NCBI GenBank assembly: GCA_913063155.1
Contig: CAJXYU010000001.1
Span: forward strand, 124,001 to 188,000
Direction of reading: 5' to 3'
Length of the DNA: 64,000 nucleotides
Source: an uncultured Desulfovibrio sp.
Lineage (GTDB): Bacteria; Desulfobacterota; Desulfovibrionia; Desulfovibrionales; Desulfovibrionaceae
Shown: positions 3,255 to 31,526 of the stretch, piece after piece
Position numbering within the stretch: the first letter of the stretch is position 1
How the letters are laid out: the number at the start of each line of letters is the position of its first letter
Program-made: the position numbers and the translations under genes
The notes under the pieces: model-generated
The model's input: only the letters and a program-made list of their open reading frames with translations
What the model was told of the DNA's origin: nothing
Database searches by the model: none

Positions 3255-3482
3255 AAAAACTCAACACACTGAATTAACTCAATAAAATTATTTTCAAACT
3301 CAACGCGCTTAAATTGAAATTTACATTTTGGTCACATTGTTTTGTTGCTGACTTTTGTTATTTTCAAAATTGTAATATTAAAACTTTTGTTTAAAGATAC
3401 AAAAATGTATTTTATACAAAATCGTGTATTAAATGTATTTAAAAAGACTTCTTGACAAGCGGGGCGGCTCTCCATTAGCCAT

Positions 3483-3581
3483 ATGGACATGGATAAATTC
3501 TTCAGCAGCAACACCTTTTCCTACCTGTATTTTTGGTACTGGTTTATTCGCGCCCGCGGGCACGGAAGGGTTGTGCTGTAG
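3483..3581 (+). CDS. Aromatic-rich leader peptide (candidate attenuator peptide) [32 protein letters not shown]
   Basis: Manual translation from ATG 3483 (alternative ATG 3489) to TAG 3579-3581; contains YLYFWYWF; precedes the terminator at 3611-3645 and the aromatic operon. No strong Shine-Dalgarno seen. Confidence 0.8.
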
Positions 3582-3624
3582 CCGAAAAAAGGTACAGAAA
3601 AAGAACTTCCAAGGGCCGCGGGCG
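3551..3624 (+). promoter_or_regulatory. Candidate antiterminator helix of the aromatic-operon attenuator
   Basis: CGCCCGCGG (3551-3559) is perfectly complementary to CCGCGGGCG (3616-3624), which overlaps the terminator 5' arm. Confidence 0.65.
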
Positions 3625-3645
3625 AAAAAGCCGGCGGCCCTTTTT
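3611..3645 (+). terminator. Leader intrinsic terminator (attenuator) upstream of the aromatic supraoperon
   Basis: AAGGGCCGC (3611-3619) / GCGGCCCTT (3634-3642), inner GGC/GCC, then TTTTT; no plus-strand full-length gene lies upstream. Confidence 0.85.
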
Positions 3646-3703
3646 CTATAGCTGGGCCGACCCGGCCATCGCTCCGGCTCGAGGGCCACAAAGGAGAGAC
3701 GTA

Positions 3704-4501
3704 ATGCATATCGGCAAAGCCATCAGGTTGGAGCGCATCTTCGACCGCAACACGGGAAGAACCATCATCGTTCCCATGGACCACGGCGTCACTGTCGGGC
3801 CCATCGACGGCCTCGTGGACATGAAGGAAGCCGTGGGCCGAGTGGTCGAGGGCGGCGCAAACGCCGTTGTCGAACACAAGGGCCTGGTTCGTTGCGGTCA
3901 TCGCGCCGAAGGCAAGGACATCGGCCTCATTGTTCACCTGTCAGCCTCCACCTCTCTGTCACCGTTCCCCAACGCAAAATGTCTGGTCGCATCCGTGGAG
4001 GACGCCATCCGCCTGGGCGCTGACGCCATCAGCATTCACTGCAACCTGGGGGCCGAAACCGAAGCCGACATGCTTCGCGATTTCGGCAAGGTCGCCACGA
4101 ACGCCGCCAACTGGGGCATACCGCTGATGGCCATGGTTTACGCGCGCGGCCCCAAAATCAAGAATGAATACGACCCGGCCGTAGTGGCGCATTGCGCCCG
4201 AGTGGGCACCGAGCTGGGTGCGGACGTGGTCAAGGTCTGCTACACCGGCGACCCGGAAACCTTCAGCCGCGTCACCGACGCCTGCTGCATACCTGTGGTC
4301 ATCGCGGGCGGCCCCAAACTTGACAGCACCGAAGACTTCCTGCGAATGGTGCATGATTCCATCGAAGCTGGCGGCGCAGGCCTTTCCGTCGGCCGCAACG
4401 TCTTCCAGCACAAGGACCCCACCCGTCTCGTGGAGGCGCTGAACATGGTCGTCCACCAGGACGCGGAAGTGAAGGACGCACTCGCCCACGTCGGCGAATA
4501 A
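3704..4501 (+). CDS. 2-amino-3,7-dideoxy-D-threo-hept-6-ulosonate synthase (class I aldolase family, archaeal-type aromatic pathway)
   Basis: [34 protein letters not shown]...; ATG 3704 with GGAG SD; followed by DHQ synthase II. Confidence 0.88.
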
Positions 4502-4519: not shown

Positions 4520-5503
4520 ATGAAACGTATCGTCTTCAAGGCCATCCCCTACGACAAACACCTCGTCACCCTTGCGCTCGAATCCGGTGTGGACGCGGTC
4601 ATGGTGGAGCCCGACCAGGTGGAGGGCGTCAAATCCCTGAGCCAGATCGAAGTCATCACCCCCGACGTCATGCCCAGTGTGGAGCTCTCCCAAAAGGCCG
4701 ACGAGGAAACCGCGGTCAAGCGCATACAGGCTGGGGAAAACGTGGTCCTGGCCAAGGGCTGGGAAATCATCCCCGTGGAAAACATCCTGGCCCAGGTTCA
4801 GACTCTGGCGCTGGAAGCGGAAAGCCTGGACCGCGCAGTACTGGCCGCAGGAGTACTGGAACGCGGGGCCGACACCATCGTGGTCCTGCCCGAGGGCGCA
4901 TCCGACCTCAAGCAAATAGTCAAGGAACTCAAACTCTCCCAGGGAACCATGCAGCTCTCCGAAGCAACCGTCACGGAAGTCCGTCCCGCGGGACTCGGCC
5001 ATAGAGTCTGCGTGGACACCACGAGCGTGCTCAAGAAAGGCCAGGGAATGCTGATCGGCAACTCCTCGGCCTTTACTTTTTTGGTACACGCGGAAACCGA
5101 ATCCAACCCATACGTGGCCGCCCGCCCGTTCCGGGTCAATGCAGGAGCGGTGCACGCCTATTGCTCCATGCCCGGCGACAGGACCAGCTACCTCGAGGAA
5201 CTGGCCTCGGGTGACGATGTGCTCATCGTGGGCGCGGACGGCGAAACCTCCCTGGCCACCGTGGGCCGCTGCAAGGTGGAGATCCGCCCCATGCTGCTCA
5301 TCAAGGCCGAGGTGAAAACCAAGGAAGGCGTCGCCCAAGGCCAGGTATTCCTGCAGAACGCGGAAACCATCCGCGTGGTCTCGGCCAAAGGCGAACCGGT
5401 CAGCGTGGTCACCCTCAAGGTGGGCGACAAGATCCTGGTGAAGACCGATCAGGCAGGCCGCCATTTCGGCATGCGCATCACCGAAGACATCAAAGAAGGC
5501 TAA
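4520..5503 (+). CDS. 3-dehydroquinate synthase II (archaeal AroB' type)
   Basis: Family-typical protein with LGHRVCVDTTSVLKKGQGMLIGNSS, PFRVNAGAVHAY and GEPVSVVTLKVGDKIL; operon context. Confidence 0.88.
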   Translation: MKRIVFKAIPYDKHLVTLALESGVDAVMVEPDQVEGVKSLSQIEVITPDVMPSVELSQKADEETAVKRIQAGENVVLAKGWEIIPVENILAQVQTLALEAESLDRAVLAAGVLERGADTIVVLPEGASDLKQIVKELKLSQGTMQLSEATVTEVRPAGLGHRVCVDTTSVLKKGQGMLIGNSSAFTFLVHAETESNPYVAARPFRVNAGAVHAYCSMPGDRTSYLEELASGDDVLIVGADGETSLATVGRCKVEIRPMLLIKAEVKTKEGVAQGQVFLQNAETIRVVSAKGEPVSVVTLKVGDKILVKTDQAGRHFGMRITEDIKEG

Positions 5504-5507
5504 GGCC

Positions 5508-6608
5508 ATGGCAGAGAAGAACGACTCCCCGCTCAAGGACATGCGCGTCCGCATCGACCAACTGGACAAAAAGATCGTCGCATTGCTCAACCAACGCGCC
5601 GACGTCAGTCTCGAAGTGGGACGCTACAAGGCCAAACGCGACGAGCCCATCTACATGCCGTTCCGAGAGCGCGAGGTCATGAACAAGATCGCCGAGCGCA
5701 ACCCCGGCCCCATGCCGGAAAAGCACCTGCGCGCCATCTACAAGGAGATAATGTCCTCCTCGCGCAGGCTGCAACGCCCGGAACGCACCGTCTATCTCGG
5801 TCCGGAAGGCACCTTCTCCTACTTCGCGGCAGTGGAACACATGGGGCATTCCCAGCATCTGACTCCCAAGGCCAACTTCGAGGAAATCTTTCGTGCGGTG
5901 GCCATCGAGGGCGCGGAACTGGGCGTCATTCCCCTGGAAAACTCCCTGGAGGGCACCGTAGGACAGGTGGTCGACCTGTTCATGGCCTACCCGGTCTACA
6001 TCCAAGGCGAAATATACAACCGCATCAGCCACTGCCTCATGAGCAAGGTGGACAGCATCGACAAGGTGGAAGCCGTCTACTCCCACCCCCAACCCCTGGA
6101 ACAGTGCCGGGAATGGCTGCACGCCAAGCTGCGCGATTGCCCGCGACTGCCCACCGCTTCCACGGCCACCGCCGCCAAGGTGGCCCAGGAACAGCCCGGC
6201 GCCGCGGTTGTGGGCAACGCCAGGCTGGCAGACATGTACGACCTGAACATCCTGGCCCGGAACATCGAGGATTCCCCGGACAACTGGACCCGGTTCCTGG
6301 TCATCGCCCCTTCGCCCTGCCGCGAGGACGAGCGCGACAAGACCACCATCCTGTTCACCACCCCGGACAGCCCGGGTGCGCTGGCGGGAGTGCTGAACAC
6401 CCTGGCGGGCAAGGGCATCAACATGACCAAGCTGGAGTCCCGGCCGATGCGCAACGAAAAATGGAAGTACGTCTTTTTCACGGACCTGGAATGCGACCTT
6501 TCCAAGGCCGAATACGAATCAATGCTGAACAGGCTGCGCAAGCAGTGCCATACCCTGCGCGTTCTCGGGAGCTACCCTTCCGGACGGCAGGAGAATGGAG
6601 AGAGATAG
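5508..6608 (+). CDS. pheA: Bifunctional chorismate mutase/prephenate dehydratase
   Basis: N-terminal chorismate mutase (RVRIDQLDKKIVALLNQRA), then VYLGPEGTFSYFAA, NSLEGTVGQVVDL and C-terminal ACT (ESRPMRNEKWKYVFFTDLE). Confidence 0.95.
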   Translation: MAEKNDSPLKDMRVRIDQLDKKIVALLNQRADVSLEVGRYKAKRDEPIYMPFREREVMNKIAERNPGPMPEKHLRAIYKEIMSSSRRLQRPERTVYLGPEGTFSYFAAVEHMGHSQHLTPKANFEEIFRAVAIEGAELGVIPLENSLEGTVGQVVDLFMAYPVYIQGEIYNRISHCLMSKVDSIDKVEAVYSHPQPLEQCREWLHAKLRDCPRLPTASTATAAKVAQEQPGAAVVGNARLADMYDLNILARNIEDSPDNWTRFLVIAPSPCREDERDKTTILFTTPDSPGALAGVLNTLAGKGINMTKLESRPMRNEKWKYVFFTDLECDLSKAEYESMLNRLRKQCHTLRVLGSYPSGRQENGER

Positions 6609-6612
6609 GACA

Positions 6613-7974
6613 ATGAGCAACGACCCGAACGGAATCATCACGGTGCAGGCCCCGGCCTCCAAATCCATGTCGCACCGCACCCTCATCGCGGCTTCCCTGG
6701 CCAATGGAGAATCCGTCGTCTCCGGCCTGCTGGATTCGGACGATATCACCCGTACCCGAGGCTGCCTGGCCGCCTGCGGTGCAAAATTCGAGGAAACCGA
6801 CGACGGCGCGCTGCGCGTCACCGGCGCCGAGAACGGCCCGCGCGGAGCCAACCCGGACGGCAGGGACCGCGACGCCGAACCGCATGAAATGTATATGCAC
6901 GAGTCCGGCACCACCTGCCGCCTCATGACCGCCGTGGCCGCAGCGGGCAAGGGCAGCTTCCGCATCCATGGCGCACCGCGCATGCACGAACGCCCCATGA
7001 AGGAGCTGTGCGACGCACTCTCCCGCCTGGGCGTACACTTCACCTTCGAAGGCAAGGAAGGCTTCCTGCCGTTTGTCATGGAGACCAAGGGATTCCGGAA
7101 AAAGACCGTGGACATCACCCTGGAGGAATCCAGCCAGTATCTATCCGGCCTGCTCCTGGGCGCGCCCCTGTCGGAAAAGCCCACTCTGGTCACCGTGTCC
7201 GGCAAAAAAGCCGTATCCTGGCCGTACGTGGCCCTGACCCTCCAGGTCATGGAGGACTTCAAGGCCGGCTTCAATGTGGAGATCCTCAAGGAAGGCCGCT
7301 GGACCGAGGTTCCCTGGAGATCCATCCGCCGGGTGGAACCCGGTGAACTGCGCTTCCACGTGGAGCCCGGCAGCTACGAGCCCACCAACTACCGTGTGGA
7401 AGGCGACTGGAGCAACTCCTCCTATTTCCTGGCTGCCGGCGCCGTAGGCAAGAAGCCGGTAAGGGTCATGGGTATTCGCCCGGATTCCCTGCAGGGAGAC
7501 CGTGCCATCATCGACATCCTGGCCGAGATGGGAGCGGGCCTGAACGTGACCCCGGACAAGGGCATCACCATTTACCCCCGAAAACTGCGGGGCGTGAACG
7601 TGGACATGGGCAAATGTCCGGACTTGGTGCCGACCGTGGCCGTGGTGGCCGCCCACGCGGTAAGCCCCACCACCATCCGCAATGTCGCGCACCTGCGGAT
7701 CAAGGAATGCGACCGGCTCCAGGCCTGCGCCGAGCAGATAACCAAGACCGGCTGCAAGGTGGAGCAGTTCGACGACGGCATCAAAATCACTCCGGCTCCG
7801 CTGCCTTCGGGCACGAGCATCGATTTCGAAACCTACGGCGACCACCGCGTCCCCATGAGCATGTCCATCTTCCAGCTCGCGGGCATCACTCCGGTGTTCG
7901 ACAACCCCAAATGCGTCGGAAAATCCTTCCCCGAATTCTTCGACGAATGGAACAAGGTAGTGAAAGGCCAGTAA
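6613..7974 (+). CDS. aroA: 3-phosphoshikimate 1-carboxyvinyltransferase
   Basis: APASKSMSHRTLIAASLANGES, ESGTTCRLMTA, GDHRVPMSMSIFQL; start ATG 6613. Confidence 0.93.
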   Translation: MSNDPNGIITVQAPASKSMSHRTLIAASLANGESVVSGLLDSDDITRTRGCLAACGAKFEETDDGALRVTGAENGPRGANPDGRDRDAEPHEMYMHESGTTCRLMTAVAAAGKGSFRIHGAPRMHERPMKELCDALSRLGVHFTFEGKEGFLPFVMETKGFRKKTVDITLEESSQYLSGLLLGAPLSEKPTLVTVSGKKAVSWPYVALTLQVMEDFKAGFNVEILKEGRWTEVPWRSIRRVEPGELRFHVEPGSYEPTNYRVEGDWSNSSYFLAAGAVGKKPVRVMGIRPDSLQGDRAIIDILAEMGAGLNVTPDKGITIYPRKLRGVNVDMGKCPDLVPTVAVVAAHAVSPTTIRNVAHLRIKECDRLQACAEQITKTGCKVEQFDDGIKITPAPLPSGTSIDFETYGDHRVPMSMSIFQLAGITPVFDNPKCVGKSFPEFFDEWNKVVKGQ

Positions 7975-7975
7975 G

Positions 7976-8764
7976 ATGAGCGACCCCGAGTTTAAGAGCA
8001 TAGCCATCGTGGGCGCACGCGGCCAGATGGGCGGCATGTTCGCAGAGCGTTTCGGCGAACTGGGCTGCGACATCCATCCGCTGGACCGCCCGTTCGATGA
8101 ACAGGCGGCGCACAGGGCGGTTTCGTCCTGCGACCTCCTGCTGCTCTGCGTACCGGTCACGGCCATGGATCAGGTGCTCGGCCAGACCACCCCGCACATG
8201 CCCGAAGGCGCTGTCCTTGCCGACGTAGGGTCGGTGAAGGAACTGCCCCTGCGGGCCATGCTCAGGGCCTACGACGGCCCGGTGGTGGGCACGCACCCCC
8301 TGTTCGGGCCGGTCATTCCCGAGGGGTTCATCCCACGTGTAGCCGTAGTTCCGGGCCGCGAATCCGACACCGGGGCCGCGAACCGGGTGGCGCGAATTTT
8401 CGACGCTGCCGGGTTCACGTCGTTCCTGGCCTCCGCCGAAGAGCACGACAAGGCCATGGCCTTCATCCAGGGTCTCAATTTCACAACCACCGCGGCTTTC
8501 CTGGCCGCAGCCGGGCGCATGCCGGGCATCGAAAATTACGTCACCCCCTCCTTCAACCGCAGGCTGGAAGCGGCCAGAAAGATGCTGACCCAGGACAGCG
8601 AGCTGTTCGGCACCATCGCCGACGCCAACCCCTACCTGCAGGAAACCGCACGCCAGTTCATGACCCTGTTCAGCCTCGCCGCAGGCGGCGAGTTGGACCT
8701 TCTGGCATCTCTGGCACAGTGGTGGTGGCGCAACGACGAACAACAGGAGGGGTGCGTCCGATAG
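7976..8764 (+). CDS. tyrA: Prephenate dehydrogenase
   Basis: IAIVGARGQMGGMFAERF, LADVGSVKELPL, VVGTHPLFGP motifs; ends ...AQWWWRNDEQQEGCVR*. Confidence 0.92.
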   Translation: MSDPEFKSIAIVGARGQMGGMFAERFGELGCDIHPLDRPFDEQAAHRAVSSCDLLLLCVPVTAMDQVLGQTTPHMPEGAVLADVGSVKELPLRAMLRAYDGPVVGTHPLFGPVIPEGFIPRVAVVPGRESDTGAANRVARIFDAAGFTSFLASAEEHDKAMAFIQGLNFTTTAAFLAAAGRMPGIENYVTPSFNRRLEAARKMLTQDSELFGTIADANPYLQETARQFMTLFSLAAGGELDLLASLAQWWWRNDEQQEGCVR

Positions 8765-8801
8765 CCACGAAAACAGGAAAAGGACACCAAGGCCGCACCC
8801 C
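8720..8801 (+). promoter_or_regulatory. Candidate internal trp attenuator: Trp-Trp-Trp codons in the tyrA 3' end plus antiterminator
   Basis: TGGTGGTGG codons 8720-8728; GGGGTGCGTCC (8749-8759) pairs 10/11 with GGCCGCACCCC (8791-8801), the terminator 5' arm; GGCGCA (8727-8732) can pair with TGCGTC (8753-8758). Confidence 0.75.
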
Positions 8802-8821
8802 CCAAGGGATGCGGCCTTTTT
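8789..8821 (+). terminator. Intrinsic terminator between tyrA and trpE (attenuator)
   Basis: AAGGCCGCA (8789-8797) / TGCGGCCTT (8810-8818) perfect 9-bp stem with T-tract at 8817-8821. Confidence 0.88.
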
Positions 8822-8847
8822 ATTTCATAACATGCCAACGGAGAAAA

Positions 8848-10290
8848 ATGATGGAACCAATCAAGATCACACAGTACGGGAAATGGCTGCCCGCGGACGT
8901 ACAGACGCCCATCAGCCTGTACCTGGGCCTGGTGGGCGATCGGCCCGGCATCCTGCTGGAATCCGCCGAGGTGGATGGGCGGCTCGGCCGATACAGCCTC
9001 ATTGCCTGGGACTTCAGACTCACGCTCTACCCCGACAAGGGCAAACTGGTCGTAGACGTGAAGGACAAACGTTTCGAGCCGCTCAAGGAACTGGCGGGCA
9101 TGGATTATCTGGAAGGCCTGCGCCGGGCCAACCGACTCATCCACATTGAGCAGCAGGCGGACGGCGGGCACGACGGCCTGCCTGGTCTGACCCGGGGCAT
9201 GTACGGCTATTTCGGCTACGGCACGGGCGGCATGTTCGAACCCAAGCTGATGGACGCCCTGCCCCCGGAAAAGGCCGAAGCATGCATGGCTCTGCCCGGC
9301 CAGCTGGTGCTCTTCGACCACCTGCGGCACTCCTGCTGCTACCTGAGCCTGGACGAAGGAGCCACGCCGCGCCCGGCAGCAACCGAGTGGGGCATGGATC
9401 TGGCCGCTCCCGAAGCGGGCGAACCCACTATCCATCCGGGCAAGGAAGAATACATGGCCTCCGTGGAAAAGGCCAAGGAGCTCATCGCTGACGGCGAGTG
9501 CATCCAGGTGGTTCTTTCCACCCGTTTCTCGGTGCCCGTACCGGACGACCCGTTCCGCATCTATCGCAGACTACGGCAGGCCAATCCATCGCCGTTCATG
9601 TTCTTCATGCGCTTCCCCAAGTGTGTGCAGTCCGGCATGGTTCTGCTGGGTTCCTCGCCCGAGATGATGGTCCGCTGCGACAAGGGTGCGTTGGAAGTCC
9701 GGCCCATCGCCGGGACCCGGCCACGCGGCGAATCCGAAAAGCAGGACCTGGAGCTGGCCCAGGAACTGCTGGCCGATCCCAAGGAGCGGGCCGAGCACGT
9801 CATGCTCGTGGACCTGGGACGCAACGATCTGGGACGTATCGCCACCCCGGGCAGCGTGGAGGTGGGCAAGTTCATGAACGTGGAACGCTTCTCCCATGTC
9901 ATGCACTTGACCTCCTACGTGGAAGGCGTCTTGCGGGACAACATGGACGCCATAGACGTGCTCCAATCCACTTTCCCGGCGGGCACGCTTTCGGGCGCGC
10001 CCAAGGTACGGGCCATGGAGATCATCGCCGAGTTGGAACCGCAGGATCGCGGTCCCTACGGCGGATGCATCGGCTGGATGGGAACCGGTAACGAATCCGT
10101 GAGTCTGGATACGGGCATCACCATACGCAGCATGTGGATACGCAACGGCCTGTGCAACTGGCAGGCAGGGGCCGGAATCGTCTACGACTCCGACCCGGAA
10201 AAGGAATGGCAGGAATGCAACAACAAGGCCCGGGTGCTGCTCGAGGTCATAACCGGCAAGGGAGCTGGCGATGTTTTTACTCATAGATAA
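8848..10290 (+). CDS. trpE: Anthranilate synthase component I
   Basis: MMEPIKITQYGKWLPADVQTPISLYLGLVGDRPGILLESAE...; GSSPEMMVR, PIAGTRPRG, LSGAPKVRAMEII; start 8848 with GGAG SD. Confidence 0.95.
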   Translation: MMEPIKITQYGKWLPADVQTPISLYLGLVGDRPGILLESAEVDGRLGRYSLIAWDFRLTLYPDKGKLVVDVKDKRFEPLKELAGMDYLEGLRRANRLIHIEQQADGGHDGLPGLTRGMYGYFGYGTGGMFEPKLMDALPPEKAEACMALPGQLVLFDHLRHSCCYLSLDEGATPRPAATEWGMDLAAPEAGEPTIHPGKEEYMASVEKAKELIADGECIQVVLSTRFSVPVPDDPFRIYRRLRQANPSPFMFFMRFPKCVQSGMVLLGSSPEMMVRCDKGALEVRPIAGTRPRGESEKQDLELAQELLADPKERAEHVMLVDLGRNDLGRIATPGSVEVGKFMNVERFSHVMHLTSYVEGVLRDNMDAIDVLQSTFPAGTLSGAPKVRAMEIIAELEPQDRGPYGGCIGWMGTGNESVSLDTGITIRSMWIRNGLCNWQAGAGIVYDSDPEKEWQECNNKARVLLEVITGKGAGDVFTHR

Positions 10291-10843
10291 TTACGATTCC
10301 TTCACCTTCAATCTGGTGCAGGCCTTTCAACAGCTCGGGGCCGACCCCGTGGTCATCCGCAACGATCGCGAAGAGCTGCTGGAAATGGCGGGCAATGGCA
10401 AGCTGGAGCGGGTCTGCATCTCTCCCGGCCCCAGTCGTCCGGAAAACGCGGGTTTCTGCCTGGAGTTCCTGAAGCGGCTGCCCAAGGTGGTGCCCGTGCT
10501 GGGCGTCTGCCTCGGCCATCAGTGCCTGGGGCATCACGCCGGAGCCGAGGTCGTGCGCAACCGTCGCATCATGCACGGCAAGACCTCCAAGGTATTCCAC
10601 GACAACTCGGGCGTGTTCAAGGGACTGCCCGACGGATTTGAGGTCTGCCGCTACCACTCTCTGGTGGTGCTGGCCAAGCAGGCGCTGGACAAGCTGACCA
10701 TCACTGCCACGGCGGACCGCGACGAAGTCATGGGCATCACCTACAAGGACCGGCCGTGGTACGGGGTCCAGTTCCACCCGGAATCCATACTGACCCCCAA
10801 GGGACCGCAACTGCTGCAAAACTTCCTGGAAATGGAAGCATAG
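10271..10843 (+). CDS. trpG: Anthranilate synthase component II (glutamine amidotransferase)
   Basis: LLIDNYDSFTFNLVQ, ISPGPSRPENAG, VLGVCLGHQ, VQFHPES; overlaps trpE end by 20 nt. Confidence 0.95.
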   Translation: MFLLIDNYDSFTFNLVQAFQQLGADPVVIRNDREELLEMAGNGKLERVCISPGPSRPENAGFCLEFLKRLPKVVPVLGVCLGHQCLGHHAGAEVVRNRRIMHGKTSKVFHDNSGVFKGLPDGFEVCRYHSLVVLAKQALDKLTITATADRDEVMGITYKDRPWYGVQFHPESILTPKGPQLLQNFLEMEA

Positions 10844-10853
10844 GAGACATGTC

Positions 10854-11867
10854 ATGACCACCGTACCTGAAGTATTGGAACTGCTGGCCCAGGGACAACC
10901 TCTGGACGACGTGCAGGCGGACATGATGTTCGGCCTGCTCATGGATGGAAAACTGGAACCGGCCAGCGCCGGAGCCTTTCTCATGGGACTGCGGGCCAAG
11001 GGCGAGGATTCCACGGACCTGGCCGCCGGAGTGCGCGCCGGGCTGCAACACGCCAAGGCCATCCCCGGCTACACGGACGGCAGCGTGGACCTGCCGGTCA
11101 TCGACACCTGCGGAACGGGCGGCGACGGCTCGCTCAGCTTCAACTGCTCCACGGCCGTGGCTCTGTTCCTGGCCGACATGGGCTACAAGGTGGCCAAGCA
11201 CGGCAACCGCTCTGTATCTTCGTCCTGCGGCAGCGCCGATGTGCTCGAGGCCCTGGGCGTGCCTCTCATGCAGGCCCCCGAGGATGCGGCCGACTCCCTT
11301 TCCAGGACCAACTTCGCCTTCCTGTTCGCGCCCAACTACCACCCGGCCTTCAAGCACATCATGCCCGTGCGCCAGGCCTTGGGCATCCGTACCCTGTTCA
11401 ACTTCATGGGGCCGCTGCTGAACCCGGCCCGCCCCACCCACCAGTTGCTGGGAGTGGGCGATCCGTCCAAGCTCCAGATCATGGGCGAAACCCTGCTGCT
11501 CACCGGCATCGAGCGGGCCATGGTTATCTCCGGTGCGGGGGGCTTCGACGAGGTGACCACCTTCGGTCCGGCCCGGGGCTATCTGGTTCATGACGGGATC
11601 ATGGAAAAGACCACCGTCAATCCCGACCGGCTCGGCTTCAAGACCCACAGCGCGGAAGACGTGCGGGTTTCCGGCAAGGACGAAGCCGTGGCGGTCATGA
11701 GGGACATCCTGGCCGGCAAGGGGCCGGAGGCCATGATGGACATGGTGGCCGTGAACCTTGCGGTCTGCATCCACCTTGTGGAACAAGAGTCCATGCGCGA
11801 CTGCGCGGACAAGGCGAAAAACGCCGTCAAACAAGGACTCACAAAGGGGTTACCCAATGCTGGATAA
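10854..11867 (+). CDS. trpD: Anthranilate phosphoribosyltransferase
   Basis: DTCGTGGDGSLSFNCSTAVA, KHGNRSVSSSCGSADVLEALG, GPLLNPARPTHQLLGV. Confidence 0.95.
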   Translation: MTTVPEVLELLAQGQPLDDVQADMMFGLLMDGKLEPASAGAFLMGLRAKGEDSTDLAAGVRAGLQHAKAIPGYTDGSVDLPVIDTCGTGGDGSLSFNCSTAVALFLADMGYKVAKHGNRSVSSSCGSADVLEALGVPLMQAPEDAADSLSRTNFAFLFAPNYHPAFKHIMPVRQALGIRTLFNFMGPLLNPARPTHQLLGVGDPSKLQIMGETLLLTGIERAMVISGAGGFDEVTTFGPARGYLVHDGIMEKTTVNPDRLGFKTHSAEDVRVSGKDEAVAVMRDILAGKGPEAMMDMVAVNLAVCIHLVEQESMRDCADKAKNAVKQGLTKGLPNAG

Positions 11868-12627
11868 GTTCAGGAAGGCCAAGCAGCCCGAAATAGAAGC
11901 GCTGCGCGAGGAATTCATGGCCGGACAAATTCCCGCGAAATACGAGGGCGAGCGGCCCTCCTTTACCGGGGCCATCCGAGCCAAGGGACCAGGGGCGGTC
12001 ATCGCGGAATTCAAACCCGCCTCTCCCTCCAAGGGAATTCTGCGCGAACACGCCAATCCCCTGGACTATGCCCAGGCCTATGCGGAAAACGGAGCCGCGG
12101 CCATGAGTGTGCTCACGGAAAGCCAATACTTCCAAGGGCACCCCAACTACCTGTTCATGTGCGCCCAGTACGGCCTGCCCCTGCTGCGCAAGGACTTCAT
12201 CCTGGACCCGCTGCAGGTGGCCATGACCGCTTCCAGCCCTGCCTCGGCCATGCTGCTCATCGCCCGCATGTTCGGTTCCACCCACGAACTTCGCCAGCTT
12301 ATCCAACTGGCCGAAATGGCCGGACTGGAGCCGGTGGTGGAGATATTCGACGAGCAGGACCTGGAGTCCGCGCGCGAGGCCGGAGCCACCATCATCCAGG
12401 TCAACAACCGGGACCTGAACACGCTGACCACCACCCTGGACGTGTCGCGCAGGCTCATGGACAAGCAGAACGACGAACTGTGGATCAGCGCCAGCGGGGT
12501 GGAATGCAGGGAACAGGTCCTGGAGATGGCCGACCTCGCCTTCGACGCAGTACTCGTGGGCACCAGCCTTATGCTGGCCGACGATCCGGGAGCGATGCTG
12601 GCCGAACTGACGGGAGCGGGACAATGA
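11857..12627 (+). CDS. trpC: Indole-3-glycerol phosphate synthase
   Basis: VIAEFKPASPSKGILRE, LLRKDFILDPLQV, VNNRDLNT; start ATG 11857 overlaps the trpD end. Confidence 0.95.
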   Translation: MLDKFRKAKQPEIEALREEFMAGQIPAKYEGERPSFTGAIRAKGPGAVIAEFKPASPSKGILREHANPLDYAQAYAENGAAAMSVLTESQYFQGHPNYLFMCAQYGLPLLRKDFILDPLQVAMTASSPASAMLLIARMFGSTHELRQLIQLAEMAGLEPVVEIFDEQDLESAREAGATIIQVNNRDLNTLTTTLDVSRRLMDKQNDELWISASGVECREQVLEMADLAFDAVLVGTSLMLADDPGAMLAELTGAGQ

Positions 12628-13247
12628 AACGGCCAAAGGTCAAGGTCTGCGGCATGACCCGCCAGGAAGACGTCAGTCTGTGCAGCGGCCTCGGCGCTCA
12701 CTTCCTGGGGTTCATCTTCCATGAAGGCAGCCCGCGCAACGTACGGCGCGACTTCGCGGCCGGGGCCGATGCAGGCTCCGCTGCCAAGGTGGGCGTGTTC
12801 GTACGCCAGACCGCGGACGAGGTCAAAGAGATCATCCGCGAGTGCGGCCTGGACTATGCTCAACTGCACGGCGGCCAGGACGAGGAGTTCTGCGACGCCG
12901 TGGGGCCGGACCGGGTCATCAAGGTGCTCTGGCCGGAAAAGTACGACTCCCCGGAAGCGCTGCAGGCCGACATCGTCCGCTTCGCCCCTCACTGCTCCCA
13001 TCTGCTCTTTGATACGGGCAAAAGCGGCGGCGGACATGGCCGGGCCATGAACCTGGATATATTCCAGTCCATTGCAATACCCAAACCCTGGTTTCTTGCC
13101 GGAGGATTGTGCGCCGAGAACACCCATGCGGCGTTGCAGGTTGAACCGGATGTGCTGGACCTCAACTCCGGCGTGGAAGCGGCCCCTGGCATCAAGGATG
13201 AAAACAAACTACGGGCAGTGATGCAAAAGCTGTCCGAAGCATCATAG
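12624..13247 (+). CDS. trpF: Phosphoribosylanthranilate isomerase
   Basis: KVKVCGMTRQEDVSLCSGLGAHFLGFIF..., FLAGGLCAENTHAAL, DLNSGVEAAPGIKDENKL; ATG 12624 overlaps the trpC stop. Confidence 0.93.
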   Translation: MKRPKVKVCGMTRQEDVSLCSGLGAHFLGFIFHEGSPRNVRRDFAAGADAGSAAKVGVFVRQTADEVKEIIRECGLDYAQLHGGQDEEFCDAVGPDRVIKVLWPEKYDSPEALQADIVRFAPHCSHLLFDTGKSGGGHGRAMNLDIFQSIAIPKPWFLAGGLCAENTHAALQVEPDVLDLNSGVEAAPGIKDENKLRAVMQKLSEAS

Positions 13248-13257
13248 GAATCAAGTT

Positions 13258-14421
13258 ATGAAAAAAGGTTACTTCGGCGACTTCGGCGGCCAGTTCGTTC
13301 CGGAACTGCTCATGCCGCCGCTTCTGGAGCTGGAAGAGGCCATGAACACCATCATGACCACCAGGGAATTCCAGCGGGAATTCGCGGACCTGCTCCGCGA
13401 CTGCGTGGGCAGGCCCTCGGCCCTGACCCATTGTCCCAACCTCTCCAAGGACACGGGCGTGGACCTCTGGCTCAAACGCGAGGACCTGAACCACACGGGG
13501 GCGCACAAGATCAACAACACTCTGGGGCAAGCCCTGCTGACCAAGAGGATGGGCAAAAAGGTTCTGCTCACAGAGACCGGTGCGGGCATGAACGGCGTGG
13601 CCACGGCCACGGCCGCGGCCATGATGGACCTGGAGTGCGTCGTGTACATGGGGGCGGTGGACGTGGAGCGCCAAGCCCTCAACGTACGGCGCATGGAACT
13701 TCTCGGAGCGCGCGTTATCCCCGTGGAATCCGGCACCAAGACCCTGAAGGACGCCATTAACGCGGCGCTGCGCTTCTGGATCGCCGAACAGGGAAACACG
13801 CACTATTGCTTCGGCACGGCAGCAGGACCGCACCCCTTCCCGCTGCTGGTACGCGAGTTCCAGGCCATCGTGGGCCGGGAGGCCCGCCAGCAGTTTCAGG
13901 ACAAGACCGGAAAACTTCCGGACGTGGTCTGCGCCTGCGTGGGCGGCGGTTCCAATGCAATAGGCGCGTTCCACGCTTTTGTGCCGGATGAATCCGTCCG
14001 GCTGGTGGGTGTCGAGGCCGGAGGAACCGGCGAACCCGGCTGCTACAACTCCGCCCCGCTGAATCTGGGCTCCGAGGGAGTGCTGCACGGCATGAAATCC
14101 ATGCTGCTCCAAACCGAAGAAGGACAGATTCTCCCTTCACATTCGGTTTCCGCCGGTCTCGACTACCCCGGTGTAGGCCCGGAACATTCAGCCTTGCATG
14201 CCAGTGGCCGGGCCGAATACGACGTCATCAACGATACCGAGGCCTTGAATGCCTTTCAGGTCCTGTCTCGGCGTGAAGGCATCATCCCGGCCCTGGAAAG
14301 CTCCCACGCCGTGGCCTGGGTGCTGGAGAACAAGGACAAGCTGCAGGGCAAGAGCGTTCTCGTGAACCTGTCGGGACGCGGAGACAAGGATATGGACATC
14401 GTCGAACGAGTCCTCGGGTAA
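13258..14421 (+). CDS. trpB: Tryptophan synthase beta chain
   Basis: GDFGGQFVPELLMP, LKREDLNHTGAHKINNTLGQ, ETGAGMNGVATATAA, CVGGGSNAIGAF. Confidence 0.96.
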   Translation: MKKGYFGDFGGQFVPELLMPPLLELEEAMNTIMTTREFQREFADLLRDCVGRPSALTHCPNLSKDTGVDLWLKREDLNHTGAHKINNTLGQALLTKRMGKKVLLTETGAGMNGVATATAAAMMDLECVVYMGAVDVERQALNVRRMELLGARVIPVESGTKTLKDAINAALRFWIAEQGNTHYCFGTAAGPHPFPLLVREFQAIVGREARQQFQDKTGKLPDVVCACVGGGSNAIGAFHAFVPDESVRLVGVEAGGTGEPGCYNSAPLNLGSEGVLHGMKSMLLQTEEGQILPSHSVSAGLDYPGVGPEHSALHASGRAEYDVINDTEALNAFQVLSRREGIIPALESSHAVAWVLENKDKLQGKSVLVNLSGRGDKDMDIVERVLG

Positions 14422-14431
14422 GGAGCGAACA

Positions 14432-15196
14432 ATGACATCTCCCATGAAAGAAAAGATACAAGCGGCAAAGGCACAGGGGAAAACCGCGGTGATCCCCTAC
14501 CTCCCGGCAGGCTATCCGACCCGTGAACAGTTCTGGAAGGAGCTGGAAATGCTTGATGCGGCAGGCGCTGCAATCATCGAGATCGGCATGCCCTTTTCCG
14601 ATCCCGTGGCGGACGGCCCGGTGGTGGAGGCGGCCTGCCTCCAGGTGTTGGAGGACGGCATCAATCTGAAATGGATATTCGACGGGCTCAAGGAACGCAA
14701 AGGACAGCTCGATGCGGGCCTGCTGCTCATGGGCTACCTCAACCCCATTCTGCAGTACGGTGTGGACAAATTCGCCGAGGACTGCGAGGCAGCCGGAGTC
14801 TCGGGCCTGATCATCGCGGACATGCCCATTGACGAGGCCGATTTCGTCATCAAGGCCATGAAGCCGCGCGGCGTGGAGTTCATCCCCCTGGTGGGCCTGA
14901 ACACCTCCAAGGAACGCATGGCCCTGTACGCCAGGGAGGCCGAAGGATTCGTGTACGTGGTTTCGGTACTCGGCACCACGGGCCAGCGCGACAGCCTGCC
15001 CACCGAAGTCAAGGCCAAGCTCGCCGAGGTCCGGGAAGTCTTCGACATTCCGGCGGCCCTCGGCTTCGGCCTCAAAACCCCGAGTCAACTTGAGCCCTTC
15101 GGCGACCTGGTGGATGCCGCGGTCATCGGCTCGTCCCTCATCAGCCACATAAAGAACGGCGGGACATCAGAGTCCTACATGAAGGCCTGGACCTAG
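14432..15196 (+). CDS. trpA: Tryptophan synthase alpha chain
   Basis: VIPYLPAGYPT, IEIGMPFSDPVADGPVV, ALGFGLKTPSQL. Confidence 0.94.
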   Translation: MTSPMKEKIQAAKAQGKTAVIPYLPAGYPTREQFWKELEMLDAAGAAIIEIGMPFSDPVADGPVVEAACLQVLEDGINLKWIFDGLKERKGQLDAGLLLMGYLNPILQYGVDKFAEDCEAAGVSGLIIADMPIDEADFVIKAMKPRGVEFIPLVGLNTSKERMALYAREAEGFVYVVSVLGTTGQRDSLPTEVKAKLAEVREVFDIPAALGFGLKTPSQLEPFGDLVDAAVIGSSLISHIKNGGTSESYMKAWT

Positions 15197-29248: not shown

Positions 29249-29408
29249 ATTCCAGCGCCCCGCTCTTCGGTTCCGCCGGGCAATCCGGAAGCCGTCCTTT
29301 GCAGACGAGCCCGGCCGATTCGATGATTTCGAGAAGCCTTGTTTGCTGTCCCGCTTCGGTGTAGGTTACAAAACCCGTTAACGCTGTATGGTTTTATTGG
29401 AGTTTTGA

Positions 29409-31526
29409 GTGGCCGGCATTGAACACCCGCATTCCTTTTTCTACCCCGACACTGTGGCTGTGATCGGCGCGTCCGGAACCCCCGGCAAGGTGGGACACAC
29501 CATCGTCTCCAACATGGTTGCCGCTGGCTTCAAAGGCCGTCTGATTCCCGTGAATCCCAAAGGCGGTGAAATCCTCGGCCTGCCCGTGATTTCAGAAGTG
29601 ACCGCCCTGCCCCGCAACCTTGACTTGGCCGTCGTTTCGGTACGCCGCGACCTGGTGCTCCCCACCCTGGAGGCACTGGGCGAACTGCGCTGCAAGTCCT
29701 GCATCGTCATCACCGCCGGGTTCAAGGAAGTCGGCCTGGACGGCTACCATCTGGAAGAACAAATCACCGCGATCTGCGACCGGGCCGGAATGGCCCTGCT
29801 CGGTCCCAACTGCCTGGGCATGATCAACACCCAGGCCGGGGTCAATGCCTCCTTTGCGGCCAGCCGGCCCGGACCGGGCAATATAGCCTTCTTTTCCCAA
29901 TCCGGAGCTCTGTGCGTGGCCATCCTGGACTGGGCTCTGGGCGCGGGAATCGGATTTTCCAAATTCATCAGCCTGGGCAACAAGGCGGTCCTCGACGAAG
30001 CGGACATGCTTCACTACCTGAACAGCGACGAGGACACCAGGGTCATCCTCGGATACCTCGAGAACGTGGAGCACGGAGAAAAATTTCTGCAGCAGGCACG
30101 AATAGTGAGCCGCAACAAACCGGTGATCATGATCAAATCCGGAACCACGGCGGCCGGGGCCAAGGCCGCCTCGTCCCATACCGGAGCGATCGCCGGTTCA
30201 GACCAGGCCTACAGCGCGGCTTTCCACCAGACCGGCGTCATCCGTGTGGGCGACGTGGAGTCGCTCTTCAACCTGGCTCAGGCCTTTTCCGAGCAGCCGC
30301 TGCCCAAGGGGCCGGGGCTGACCATTGTCACCAACTCGGGCGGGCCGGGCATCATCGCCGCGGACACCACCGAGCGCTCCAGACTGAACATGGCCCAGCT
30401 CACCCCGGAAACCGTGCAAAAGCTTCAGGAACTGCTGCCCAGCTACGCGGCTTTCTACAACCCGGTGGACATCACGGCCGACGCCGATCCCATCCGCTAC
30501 CGCAAGGCTTTGGGCATCGTGGCCGAAGACCCCATGGTGCACTCCATCATGGTTCTGCTTACGCCCGCGGGCGCCGCGGACATCGAGGGCACGGCCCAGG
30601 CGGTCATCGATACGGCCCGCAAGTACGGCAAACCCATGTTCGCGGTATTCATGGGTAAAAGGCGTGTGGCCACGGCCCGGAAGATGTTCCGGGATGCGGG
30701 CGTTCCCTGCTACGCCTTTCCCGAACCGGCCGTAAAAAGCATCGAGGCCATGTACGAATACGCCCTGTGGCGCAGGCGTCCCGAGCTGGAATATCCCGAA
30801 CTGGAGCGGGATGTGGAACGCGCCGGGGAGGTCATCGAAACCGCCATCCGGCGCGGCGAAAACGAAATCGTGGAGTTCCAGGCCCAGGAAGTGCTCAAGG
30901 CCTACGGCCTGCCCACGCCGCAGACCAGTCTGGCCCGTTCCAGCAAGGAAGCCGTGGAAATTGCCGAAGACATCGGCTATCCAGTGGCGCTCAAGATCGC
31001 CTCACCCCAGATTTCCCACAAGACCGACGTGAAAGGCGTCAAGGTCAACCTCAGGAATGCCGATGAGGTGGCCCGGAACTTCAAGGACATCACGGCCCGC
31101 GCCCAGCGCATGCGGCCCGACGCCTACATCGCCGGGTGCCTTGTCCAGGAGATGGCTCCTGCGGACTCACGCGAGGTCATCATCGGCTTCAAGCGCGACG
31201 ACCAGTTCGGACCGCTGCTCATGTTCGGACTGGGCGGCATCTACGTGGAGATACTCAAGGACATAGCCTTCCGGCTGGCCCCGCTCTCCAGGGCCGACGC
31301 CAGGGGCATCATCAGTGAAATAAAATCCTACATGCTCCTGAAAGGATTGCAGGGCGACAAGCCCGTGTGTTTCGAAACCTTGGAGCAGATCATCCTGGCC
31401 ATGTCCCGGTTCGCCCAGGACTTCCCCAATGTCCTGGAGGCCGAGTTCAATCCGGTGCTGGTGAATAATGACCGCGCCGTGGTGGCCGATGTGCGGATGA
31501 CGCTGGACCCCAAAACGATGGGGTAA
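29409..31526 (+). CDS. ADP-forming acetyl/acyl-CoA synthetase (fused alpha-beta)
   Basis: GTG start; TVAVIGASGTPGKVGHTIVSNM, GPNCLGMINT, FSQSGALCVAILDW, SSHTGAIAGSDQAY; ATP-grasp SPQISHKTDVKGVKVNL. Confidence 0.92.
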   Translation: MAGIEHPHSFFYPDTVAVIGASGTPGKVGHTIVSNMVAAGFKGRLIPVNPKGGEILGLPVISEVTALPRNLDLAVVSVRRDLVLPTLEALGELRCKSCIVITAGFKEVGLDGYHLEEQITAICDRAGMALLGPNCLGMINTQAGVNASFAASRPGPGNIAFFSQSGALCVAILDWALGAGIGFSKFISLGNKAVLDEADMLHYLNSDEDTRVILGYLENVEHGEKFLQQARIVSRNKPVIMIKSGTTAAGAKAASSHTGAIAGSDQAYSAAFHQTGVIRVGDVESLFNLAQAFSEQPLPKGPGLTIVTNSGGPGIIAADTTERSRLNMAQLTPETVQKLQELLPSYAAFYNPVDITADADPIRYRKALGIVAEDPMVHSIMVLLTPAGAADIEGTAQAVIDTARKYGKPMFAVFMGKRRVATARKMFRDAGVPCYAFPEPAVKSIEAMYEYALWRRRPELEYPELERDVERAGEVIETAIRRGENEIVEFQAQEVLKAYGLPTPQTSLARSSKEAVEIAEDIGYPVALKIASPQISHKTDVKGVKVNLRNADEVARNFKDITARAQRMRPDAYIAGCLVQEMAPADSREVIIGFKRDDQFGPLLMFGLGGIYVEILKDIAFRLAPLSRADARGIISEIKSYMLLKGLQGDKPVCFETLEQIILAMSRFAQDFPNVLEAEFNPVLVNNDRAVVADVRMTLDPKTMG

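What the first reader, a model, noticed from the sequence alone, without database searches (positions are those of the whole stretch)
3483..3645. Unannotated leader peptide YLYFWYWF plus terminator/antiterminator: one attenuator sensing Phe, Tyr and Trp
Seen directly: a 32-codon ORF (ATG 3483 to TAG 3579-3581) encodes [32 protein letters not shown]. It has 5 Phe, 3 Tyr and 2 Trp codons, seven of them in an 8-residue run (3522-3545). Next comes CGCCCGCGG (3551-3559), perfectly complementary to CCGCGGGCG (3616-3624), which overlaps the 5' arm of a terminator (3611-3619/3634-3642 plus TTTTT) located 60 bp before the first aromatic gene. The layout matches ribosome-mediated attenuation (established for trp, pheA and his operons). 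Here a single peptide could read all three aromatic end products before a 12-gene operon covering the common, Phe, Tyr and Trp pathways. Weak points: no clear Shine-Dalgarno precedes the leader ATG (a consensus TTGACA at 3452-3457 raises the possibility of a very short or leaderless 5' end). The region-1/region-2 geometry also needs modelling.
Basis: partly seen in the sequence, partly recalled or inferred. Interest (0 to 1): 0.93.

Follow-up and report, generated by a model that had tools for sequence, protein, structure and literature searches.

The report
Leader peptide sensing three aromatic amino acids
A 30-codon leader peptide packed with Phe, Tyr and Trp codons, followed by a switchable RNA terminator, sits before a 12-gene aromatic amino acid operon and probably lets one RNA switch read all three end products; the same device recurs across the sulfate-reducing bacterial family and in more distant relatives.

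Summary
An aromatic-run leader ORF, an antiterminator and a U-tailed terminator occur before the aroA'-aroB'-pheA-aroA-tyrA-trpEGDCFBA operon in nearly all Desulfovibrionaceae genomes examined: 110 parsed operon loci, 108 with Phe, Tyr and Trp in the leader. Comparable leaders occur in Desulfobacterales and Syntrophales. Antiterminator pairing is backed by covariation: one position is C-G, T-A, T-G or A-T across genomes (0/5000 shuffles as good) and is usually unpaired in the terminator. 1:2 and 2:3 pairing co-evolve; a 1:3 control does not. The aromatic run ends where a stalled ribosome would begin to cover region 2. Corrections: the conserved start is ATG 3489, not 3483; the missing Shine-Dalgarno is explained by a probable leaderless mRNA (TTGACA 35-40 nt before ATG in 108/129 loci); the antiterminator is about 18 nt, not 9. 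Paralogous aroA' loci carry mostly Phe-only or Tyr-only leaders, and Phe-only leaders precede a PaaK-type ligase and a sodium symporter, so sensor composition follows target. Ribosome-mediated attenuation is known; the triple-aromatic leaderless version appears new, though a 2005 paper listed an unspecified putative attenuator at the D. vulgaris operon. No experiment was done.

The parts
3452..3457 (+). -35 element TTGACA
   Evidence: TTGAC lies 35-40 nt before the leader ATG in 108 of 129 loci; background 0.12% per position
3475..3480 (+). weak -10 element (TTAGCC; relatives TAGCTC, TAGNNN, TATNNN) after a 17-nt spacer
   Evidence: alignment of same-genus loci; position is inferred, since the simple scan does not score it
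3487..3489 (+). predicted transcription start, at or within 2 nt of the leader AUG (leaderless mRNA)
   Evidence: fixed -35 to ATG distance, pyrimidine at -1 in 106/108 short-distance loci, SD 4-mer in only 2/108; not measured
3489..3581 (+). leader [33 protein letters not shown] (30 codons + stop)
   Evidence: start codon by alignment with 33 same-genus loci
3500..3518 (+). region 1, pairs with 3565-3581 (protector helix)
   Evidence: fold; native 1:2 better than swapped partners in 92/122, p about 1e-10; 1:3 control p = 0.51
3522..3545 (+). regulatory codon run YLYFWYWF
   Evidence: conserved run in relatives
3551..3581 (+). region 2: pairs with region 3 via 3551-3568 and with region 1 via 3565-3581
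3606..3624 (+). region 3: antiterminator 3' arm, overlapping the terminator 5' arm 3611-3622
   Evidence: fold of 3546-3624 -37.7 kcal/mol, z -4.3; covariation
3611..3642 (+). regions 3:4, intrinsic terminator hairpin
   Evidence: -26.9 kcal/mol; hairpin with U-rich tail located in 129 loci
3641..3647 (+). U-rich tail (TTTTTCT)
3704..4501 (+). aroA', 2-amino-3,7-dideoxy-D-threo-hept-6-ulosonate (ADH) synthase, first operon gene
   Evidence: TIGR01949 393 bits, cut-off 299
4520..15196 (+). rest of the 12-gene operon: dehydroquinate synthase II, pheA, aroA, tyrA, trpE, G, D, C, F, B, A
   Evidence: genes through trpC by NCBIfam; same 12-gene order in 9 operons of other genera (first 7 genes seen in a tenth, truncated locus) by tblastn

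Best explanation
This is a ribosome-mediated transcription attenuator of the trp/pheA type whose single leader peptide monitors charged tRNA-Phe, tRNA-Tyr and tRNA-Trp together. Transcription probably starts at or next to the leader AUG, so ribosomes load on a leaderless mRNA. When all three aminoacyl-tRNAs are plentiful, the ribosome runs to the stop codon (3579), covers region 2, and the terminator 3611-3642 forms before aroA'. When any of the three is scarce, the ribosome stalls within YLYFWYWF. It then covers region 1 and leaves region 2 free; region 2 captures region 3 as soon as it is transcribed, and RNA polymerase reads through into the operon. Untranslated RNA would fold 1:2 plus 3:4 and terminate. 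Shown here by sequence comparison: leader, helices, covariation and geometry. Inferred: the transcription start, ribosome stalling, and the response to each amino acid.
For: Leader plus terminator in 110 operon loci of the family, 108 with F, Y and W. Antiterminator covariation: C-G/T-A/T-G/A-T at the variable position, 53/56 distinct arm pairs canonical, 0/5000 shuffles; 99.0% of cells paired, against 35-50% when slid by 1-3 columns. This base is unpaired in the terminator fold in 87 of 124 loci. 2:3 and 1:2 co-evolve, 1:3 does not. Modelled 2:3 energy averages -36 kcal/mol with a ribosome at the start of the run and -3.8 with a ribosome at the stop codon; the last aromatic codon lies within 0 to 3 codons before the energy drop in 126/129 loci. 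Refolding barrier from antiterminator to terminator 12.1 kcal/mol in the window. Leader content follows target: Trp in 108/110 operon leaders and 3/19 paralog leaders, p about 1e-15. No TrpR homologue in the genome. Mixed-aromatic leaders of unrelated sequence with similar geometry in Desulfobacterales and Syntrophales.
Against: No expression, Term-seq or starvation data. At full-length equilibrium the terminator is almost always favoured, even with a stalled ribosome (10.8 kcal/mol median difference), so antitermination has to rest on the order of transcription. The -10 element is weak. In 15 of 110 operon leaders at least one amino acid, usually Trp, has no codon where the modelled antiterminator beats the terminator. 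In C. glutamicum AroR, with Phe-Tyr-Phe codons, only Phe limitation has an effect (PMC11802643).
Confidence: 0.88

Rival explanations
1. It is an attenuator, but it responds in practice to only one or two of the amino acids (for example Phe or Trp); the other aromatic codons are passive or modulate speed.
For: AroR of C. glutamicum has Phe-Tyr-Phe codons but responds only to Phe limitation (PMC11802643). Some genera have a single Trp codon at the very edge of the effective window, e.g. L127-L130.
Against: Trp occurs in 108/110 operon leaders but in only 3/19 paralog leaders. In 95/110 operon leaders every amino acid has a codon in the effective window. Paralog leaders mostly keep only Phe or Tyr, so composition appears to be tuned.
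Confidence: 0.15
2. The nascent peptide itself arrests the ribosome (TnaC- or Erm-like) in response to a free aromatic compound.
For: The leader is conserved and aromatic-rich near its centre.
Against: Order and identity of the aromatic residues vary widely ([40 protein letters not shown]), unlike arrest peptides, which keep exact residues (general knowledge).
Confidence: 0.04
3. A constitutive or protein-controlled terminator, T-box or riboswitch, with the ORF being incidental.
For: A terminator is present in every parsed locus.
Against: No relevant Rfam match at E up to 5, including T-box and trp leader families. The aromatic run keeps its register with the structure across unrelated sequences.
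Confidence: 0.03

Closest known systems
E. coli trp (trpL) and pheA (pheL) attenuators
   Same: Leader peptide with cognate codons, three alternative helices, terminator before the first structural gene.
   Different: One amino acid each and a Shine-Dalgarno-led leader; here three amino acids, a probable leaderless mRNA and a 12-gene operon.
E. coli ilvGMEDA attenuator (specificity Ile/Val/Leu from general knowledge)
   Same: One leader peptide monitors several end products of a branched pathway.
   Different: Branched-chain amino acids rather than aromatic; no homology was tested.
C. glutamicum aroR-aroF attenuator (Neshat et al. 2014, via PMC11802643)
   Same: Aromatic leader codons (Phe-Tyr-Phe) before a DAHP synthase gene.
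   Different: No Trp sensing reported, responds only to Phe limitation, actinobacterial, short run.
S. meliloti trpL-trpE(G) attenuator (PMC7298713)
   Same: Transcript begins at the leader ATG (leaderless leader peptide).
   Different: Trp only, alphaproteobacterial, single biosynthetic gene.
Putative attenuator of the D. vulgaris aroA'>aroB'>pheA>aroF>tyrA>[trp] supraoperon (PMC1173090, Table 7, from Merino's database)
   Same: The same operon type; an attenuator was already predicted there in 2005.
   Different: The passages read give no leader peptide, amino acid specificity, promoter arrangement, covariation or distribution.

Membership tests
Ribosome-mediated transcription attenuator | Short leader ORF enriched in codons for the operon's end products | tested here: met
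   108/110 operon leaders with F, Y and W; translation itself not shown
Ribosome-mediated transcription attenuator | Intrinsic terminator between leader and first structural gene | tested here: met
Ribosome-mediated transcription attenuator | Antiterminator (2:3) exclusive with the terminator (3:4) | tested here: met
   covariation
Ribosome-mediated transcription attenuator | Protector helix 1:2 | tested here: met
   native better than swapped in 92/122, p about 1e-10; fold of the window leader alone z -1.5 only
Ribosome-mediated transcription attenuator | Stall position frees region 2, stop codon position occludes it | tested here: met
   co-transcriptional model; the equilibrium model does not switch
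Ribosome-mediated transcription attenuator | Derepression on amino acid limitation | not testable with these tools
   needs expression data
Leaderless mRNA | Fixed promoter-to-ATG distance and no Shine-Dalgarno | tested here: met
   108/129 loci at 35-40 nt, SD 4-mer in 2/108; 19 other loci at 52-76 nt, 11 with SD
Leaderless mRNA | Mapped 5' end at AUG | not testable with these tools
   no TSS data for this genome
Rfam Trp leader, T-box or other catalogued cis RNA | Match to the covariance model | tested here: not met
   no relevant match up to E = 5
TrpR-repressed operon | TrpR homologue in the genome | tested here: not met
   PF01371 absent from G000; the control genomes rang

The most novel reading that the evidence does not exclude
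Desulfobacterota control aromatic amino acid metabolism through a set of leader-peptide attenuators whose codon composition is retuned gene by gene: Phe+Tyr+Trp for the all-pathway operon, Phe-only or Tyr-only for paralogous aroA' genes, a PaaK-type ligase and a sodium symporter. In Desulfovibrionaceae most of these leaders are read from leaderless mRNAs.
Probability: 0.75. Interest if true: 0.8.

Novelty: new variant of a known kind. Interest (0 to 1): 0.7.

Why it matters
One RNA switch that integrates three end products before a single operon covering the common pathway and all three branches is an economical form of control. The paralogous loci give natural swaps of sensor specificity on a related RNA scaffold, so how codon identity, order and spacing set attenuator response can be tested directly. 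A 2013 survey of Rfam-catalogued motifs suggested that amino acid attenuators may have originated in Gammaproteobacteria with few transfers (PMC3766115); leaders in Desulfovibrionaceae, Desulfobacterales and Syntrophales argue for a wider or independent origin. The shift from leaderless to Shine-Dalgarno-led leaders inside one family is a further handle. The Phe-only leaders suggest roles for an unassigned sodium symporter and a phenylacetate-CoA ligase in Phe metabolism.

Tried and rejected
A simple sigma-70/terminator scan found neither the promoter nor the terminator here. Rfam gave nothing relevant. My first reading that untranslated RNA would read through was wrong: RNA folded only to the end of region 3 keeps 2:3 in 112/129 loci, but folding the whole element shows a strong 1:2 helix and terminator probability above 0.5 in all 129. 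A full-length equilibrium model with a masked ribosome does not switch, so the argument was restated as co-transcriptional with a refolding barrier; the barrier values had a unit error and are not used. The TWY6 codon-run search did not retrieve the two leaders then known in this genome and was not a useful screen. The fourth CM match in the window's genome (C1:141821) has no aromatic leader and looks like a chance terminator match. Loci that first seemed to lack a leader (L163, L172, L173) are second copies of tandem aroA' genes.

Full report
Observation. The run YLYFWYWF is the only 8-residue window with at least seven aromatic residues in six frames of the 64 kb; 8 of 5000 shuffles of the intergenic region contain one on that strand. 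The operon that follows is aroA' (ADH synthase), dehydroquinate synthase II, pheA, aroA, tyrA, trpE, trpG, trpD, trpC, then trpF, trpB and trpA. The same 12-gene order was found by tblastn in nine other operons from other genera, and its first seven genes in a tenth, truncated locus.

Conservation. Upstream regions of aroA' were collected from the family. All 34 same-genus operon loci examined have the leader at the same place, with runs such as YLYFWYWF and FYFWYWY and a tail like RARGLGRGAV. Other genera have QYWYYWF, YFFYFFYFW, FYFWFWF, FFNWFYFWF or FSWYYFAYF. In all, 129 elements were parsed (110 operon, 19 paralog); loci were chosen by aromatic density, not by having all three residues. 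108 of 110 operon leaders contain F, Y and W.

Promoter and start. Relatives align with ATG 3489, not ATG 3483. TTGAC lies 35-40 nt before the leader ATG in 108 of 129 loci, while it occurs at 0.12% of background positions. With a 17-nt spacer this puts the transcription start at or next to the A of ATG. A Shine-Dalgarno 4-mer is seen in 2 of these 108 leaders, against 120 of 129 aroA' genes, and the base before ATG is C or T in 106 of 108. In 19 loci from other genera TTGAC sits 52-76 nt upstream and 11 of them have a Shine-Dalgarno 4-mer. This pattern fits a leaderless mRNA in most of the sampled family and a led one elsewhere; no 5' end has been mapped.

Helices. Region 2 (3551-3568) pairs with region 3 (3606-3624): -37.7 kcal/mol for 3546-3624, z -4.3. 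The base before GCGG in region 2, which changes the leader residue between Arg, Cys and Ser, is matched by the base after CCGC in region 3: among 56 distinct arm pairs, C-G 24, T-A 17, T-G 9, A-T 3, other 3, and none of 5000 shuffles does as well (first seen). That base is unpaired in the terminator fold in 87 of 124 loci, so the covariation speaks for the antiterminator and not for the terminator. On alignment A1, 99.0% of cells pair, against 35-50% when the partner is slid. Duplex energies of native arms beat swapped arms for 2:3 (113/122) and 1:2 (92/122, p about 1e-10), but not for the 1:3 control (p = 0.51). Shared ancestry inflates such counts, but the variable position changes more than once inside single genera.

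Geometry. With a ribosome on the run, the RNA up to the end of region 3 folds into 2:3 at -36 kcal/mol on average; with the ribosome at the stop codon only -3.8 remains. In the window the energy stays at -35.4 through Tyr17, is -32.1 at Trp18 and -24.4 at Phe19, and falls to -1.3 at the stop (codons counted from ATG 3489). The last aromatic codon lies 0-3 codons before the drop in 126 of 129 loci. At full-length equilibrium the terminator wins in nearly every state, by a median of 10.8 kcal/mol once region 4 exists; the estimated refolding barrier is 9.8 kcal/mol at the median and 12.1 in the window. The switch therefore depends on region 3 being captured before region 4 is made. In 95 of 110 operon leaders all three amino acids have a codon where the modelled antiterminator beats the terminator hairpin.

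Sensor and target. The window's genome has a second aroA' (C4:246860, 69% identical, no aromatic gene beside it) with its own leader MNIKTAFRFFFSFFFFRDTCGLGVRMR, the same layout and a matching antiterminator. Other genera have Phe-rich or Tyr-rich (SQYYYSYG, GPYYYYG) leaders before the second aroA'. Trp is in 3 of 19 paralog leaders, outside the run, against 108 of 110 operon leaders. A covariance model found a third element in the window's genome, leader MIKLFFFRFFFFMGLP before a PaaK-like phenylacetate-CoA ligase (TIGR02155, 630 bits, just under its cut-off), and Phe-only leaders before a sodium:solute symporter (PF00474 tested on one of them) in three other genomes.

Wider distribution. Desulfobacterales leaders (MVHNRSGRYYFYYWYFFNTGLPGVR) and Syntrophales leaders (MDQLRNFSSGFYFYWFFYTGICPLPCADH) have different sequences, AAGGA- or AAGGTG-type Shine-Dalgarno sites and, in most, an energy drop at the end of the run; in L022 and L053 the modelled antiterminator is weak.

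Known versus new. Ribosome-mediated attenuation, multi-amino-acid leaders and a leaderless leader peptide all have precedents. PMC1173090 (2005) lists a putative attenuator before the D. vulgaris supraoperon without, in the passages read, a leader peptide. Searches of the held papers found no description of a triple-aromatic leader; subscription journals were not searchable, so priority is not certain. TrpR is absent from the genome; TyrR was not tested.

Noticed in passing
L192:3667-3751 (G000 C4, before paralogous aroA' at L192:3861): Phe-only leader MNIKTAFRFFFSFFFFRDTCGLGVRMR with its own leaderless promoter layout, antiterminator and terminator before a second ADH synthase that stands alone.
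   Followed up: yes
L246:2137-3561 (G000 C5, minus strand): Leader MIKLFFFRFFFFMGLP and attenuator before a PaaK-like phenylacetate-CoA ligase, followed by a further ORF; suggests Phe-controlled arylacetate salvage.
   Followed up: partly
L247, L248, L249: All-Phe leaders (for example AFFFFFFFFFILARG) before a sodium:solute symporter family gene: candidate Phe-controlled transporter.
   Followed up: partly
L150, L157, L178, L252: Tyr-run leaders (SQYYYSYG, GPYYYYG) before the second aroA' in two genera, where other genera have Phe: sensor swapping between isozyme genes.
   Followed up: partly
L163, L172, L173: Tandem duplication of aroA' at the head of the operon in one genus.
   Followed up: no
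L225-L233, L237, L239-L241: In these loci, mostly of one genus, the TTGACA lies about 20 nt further upstream and most leaders show a Shine-Dalgarno-like site.
   Followed up: partly
window 29389-29412 (+), and offset 61192 of the reverse complement: Two further 8-residue stretches with six aromatic residues of all three kinds (WFYWSFEW, WTYTFWFF); probably ordinary coding sequence.
   Followed up: no
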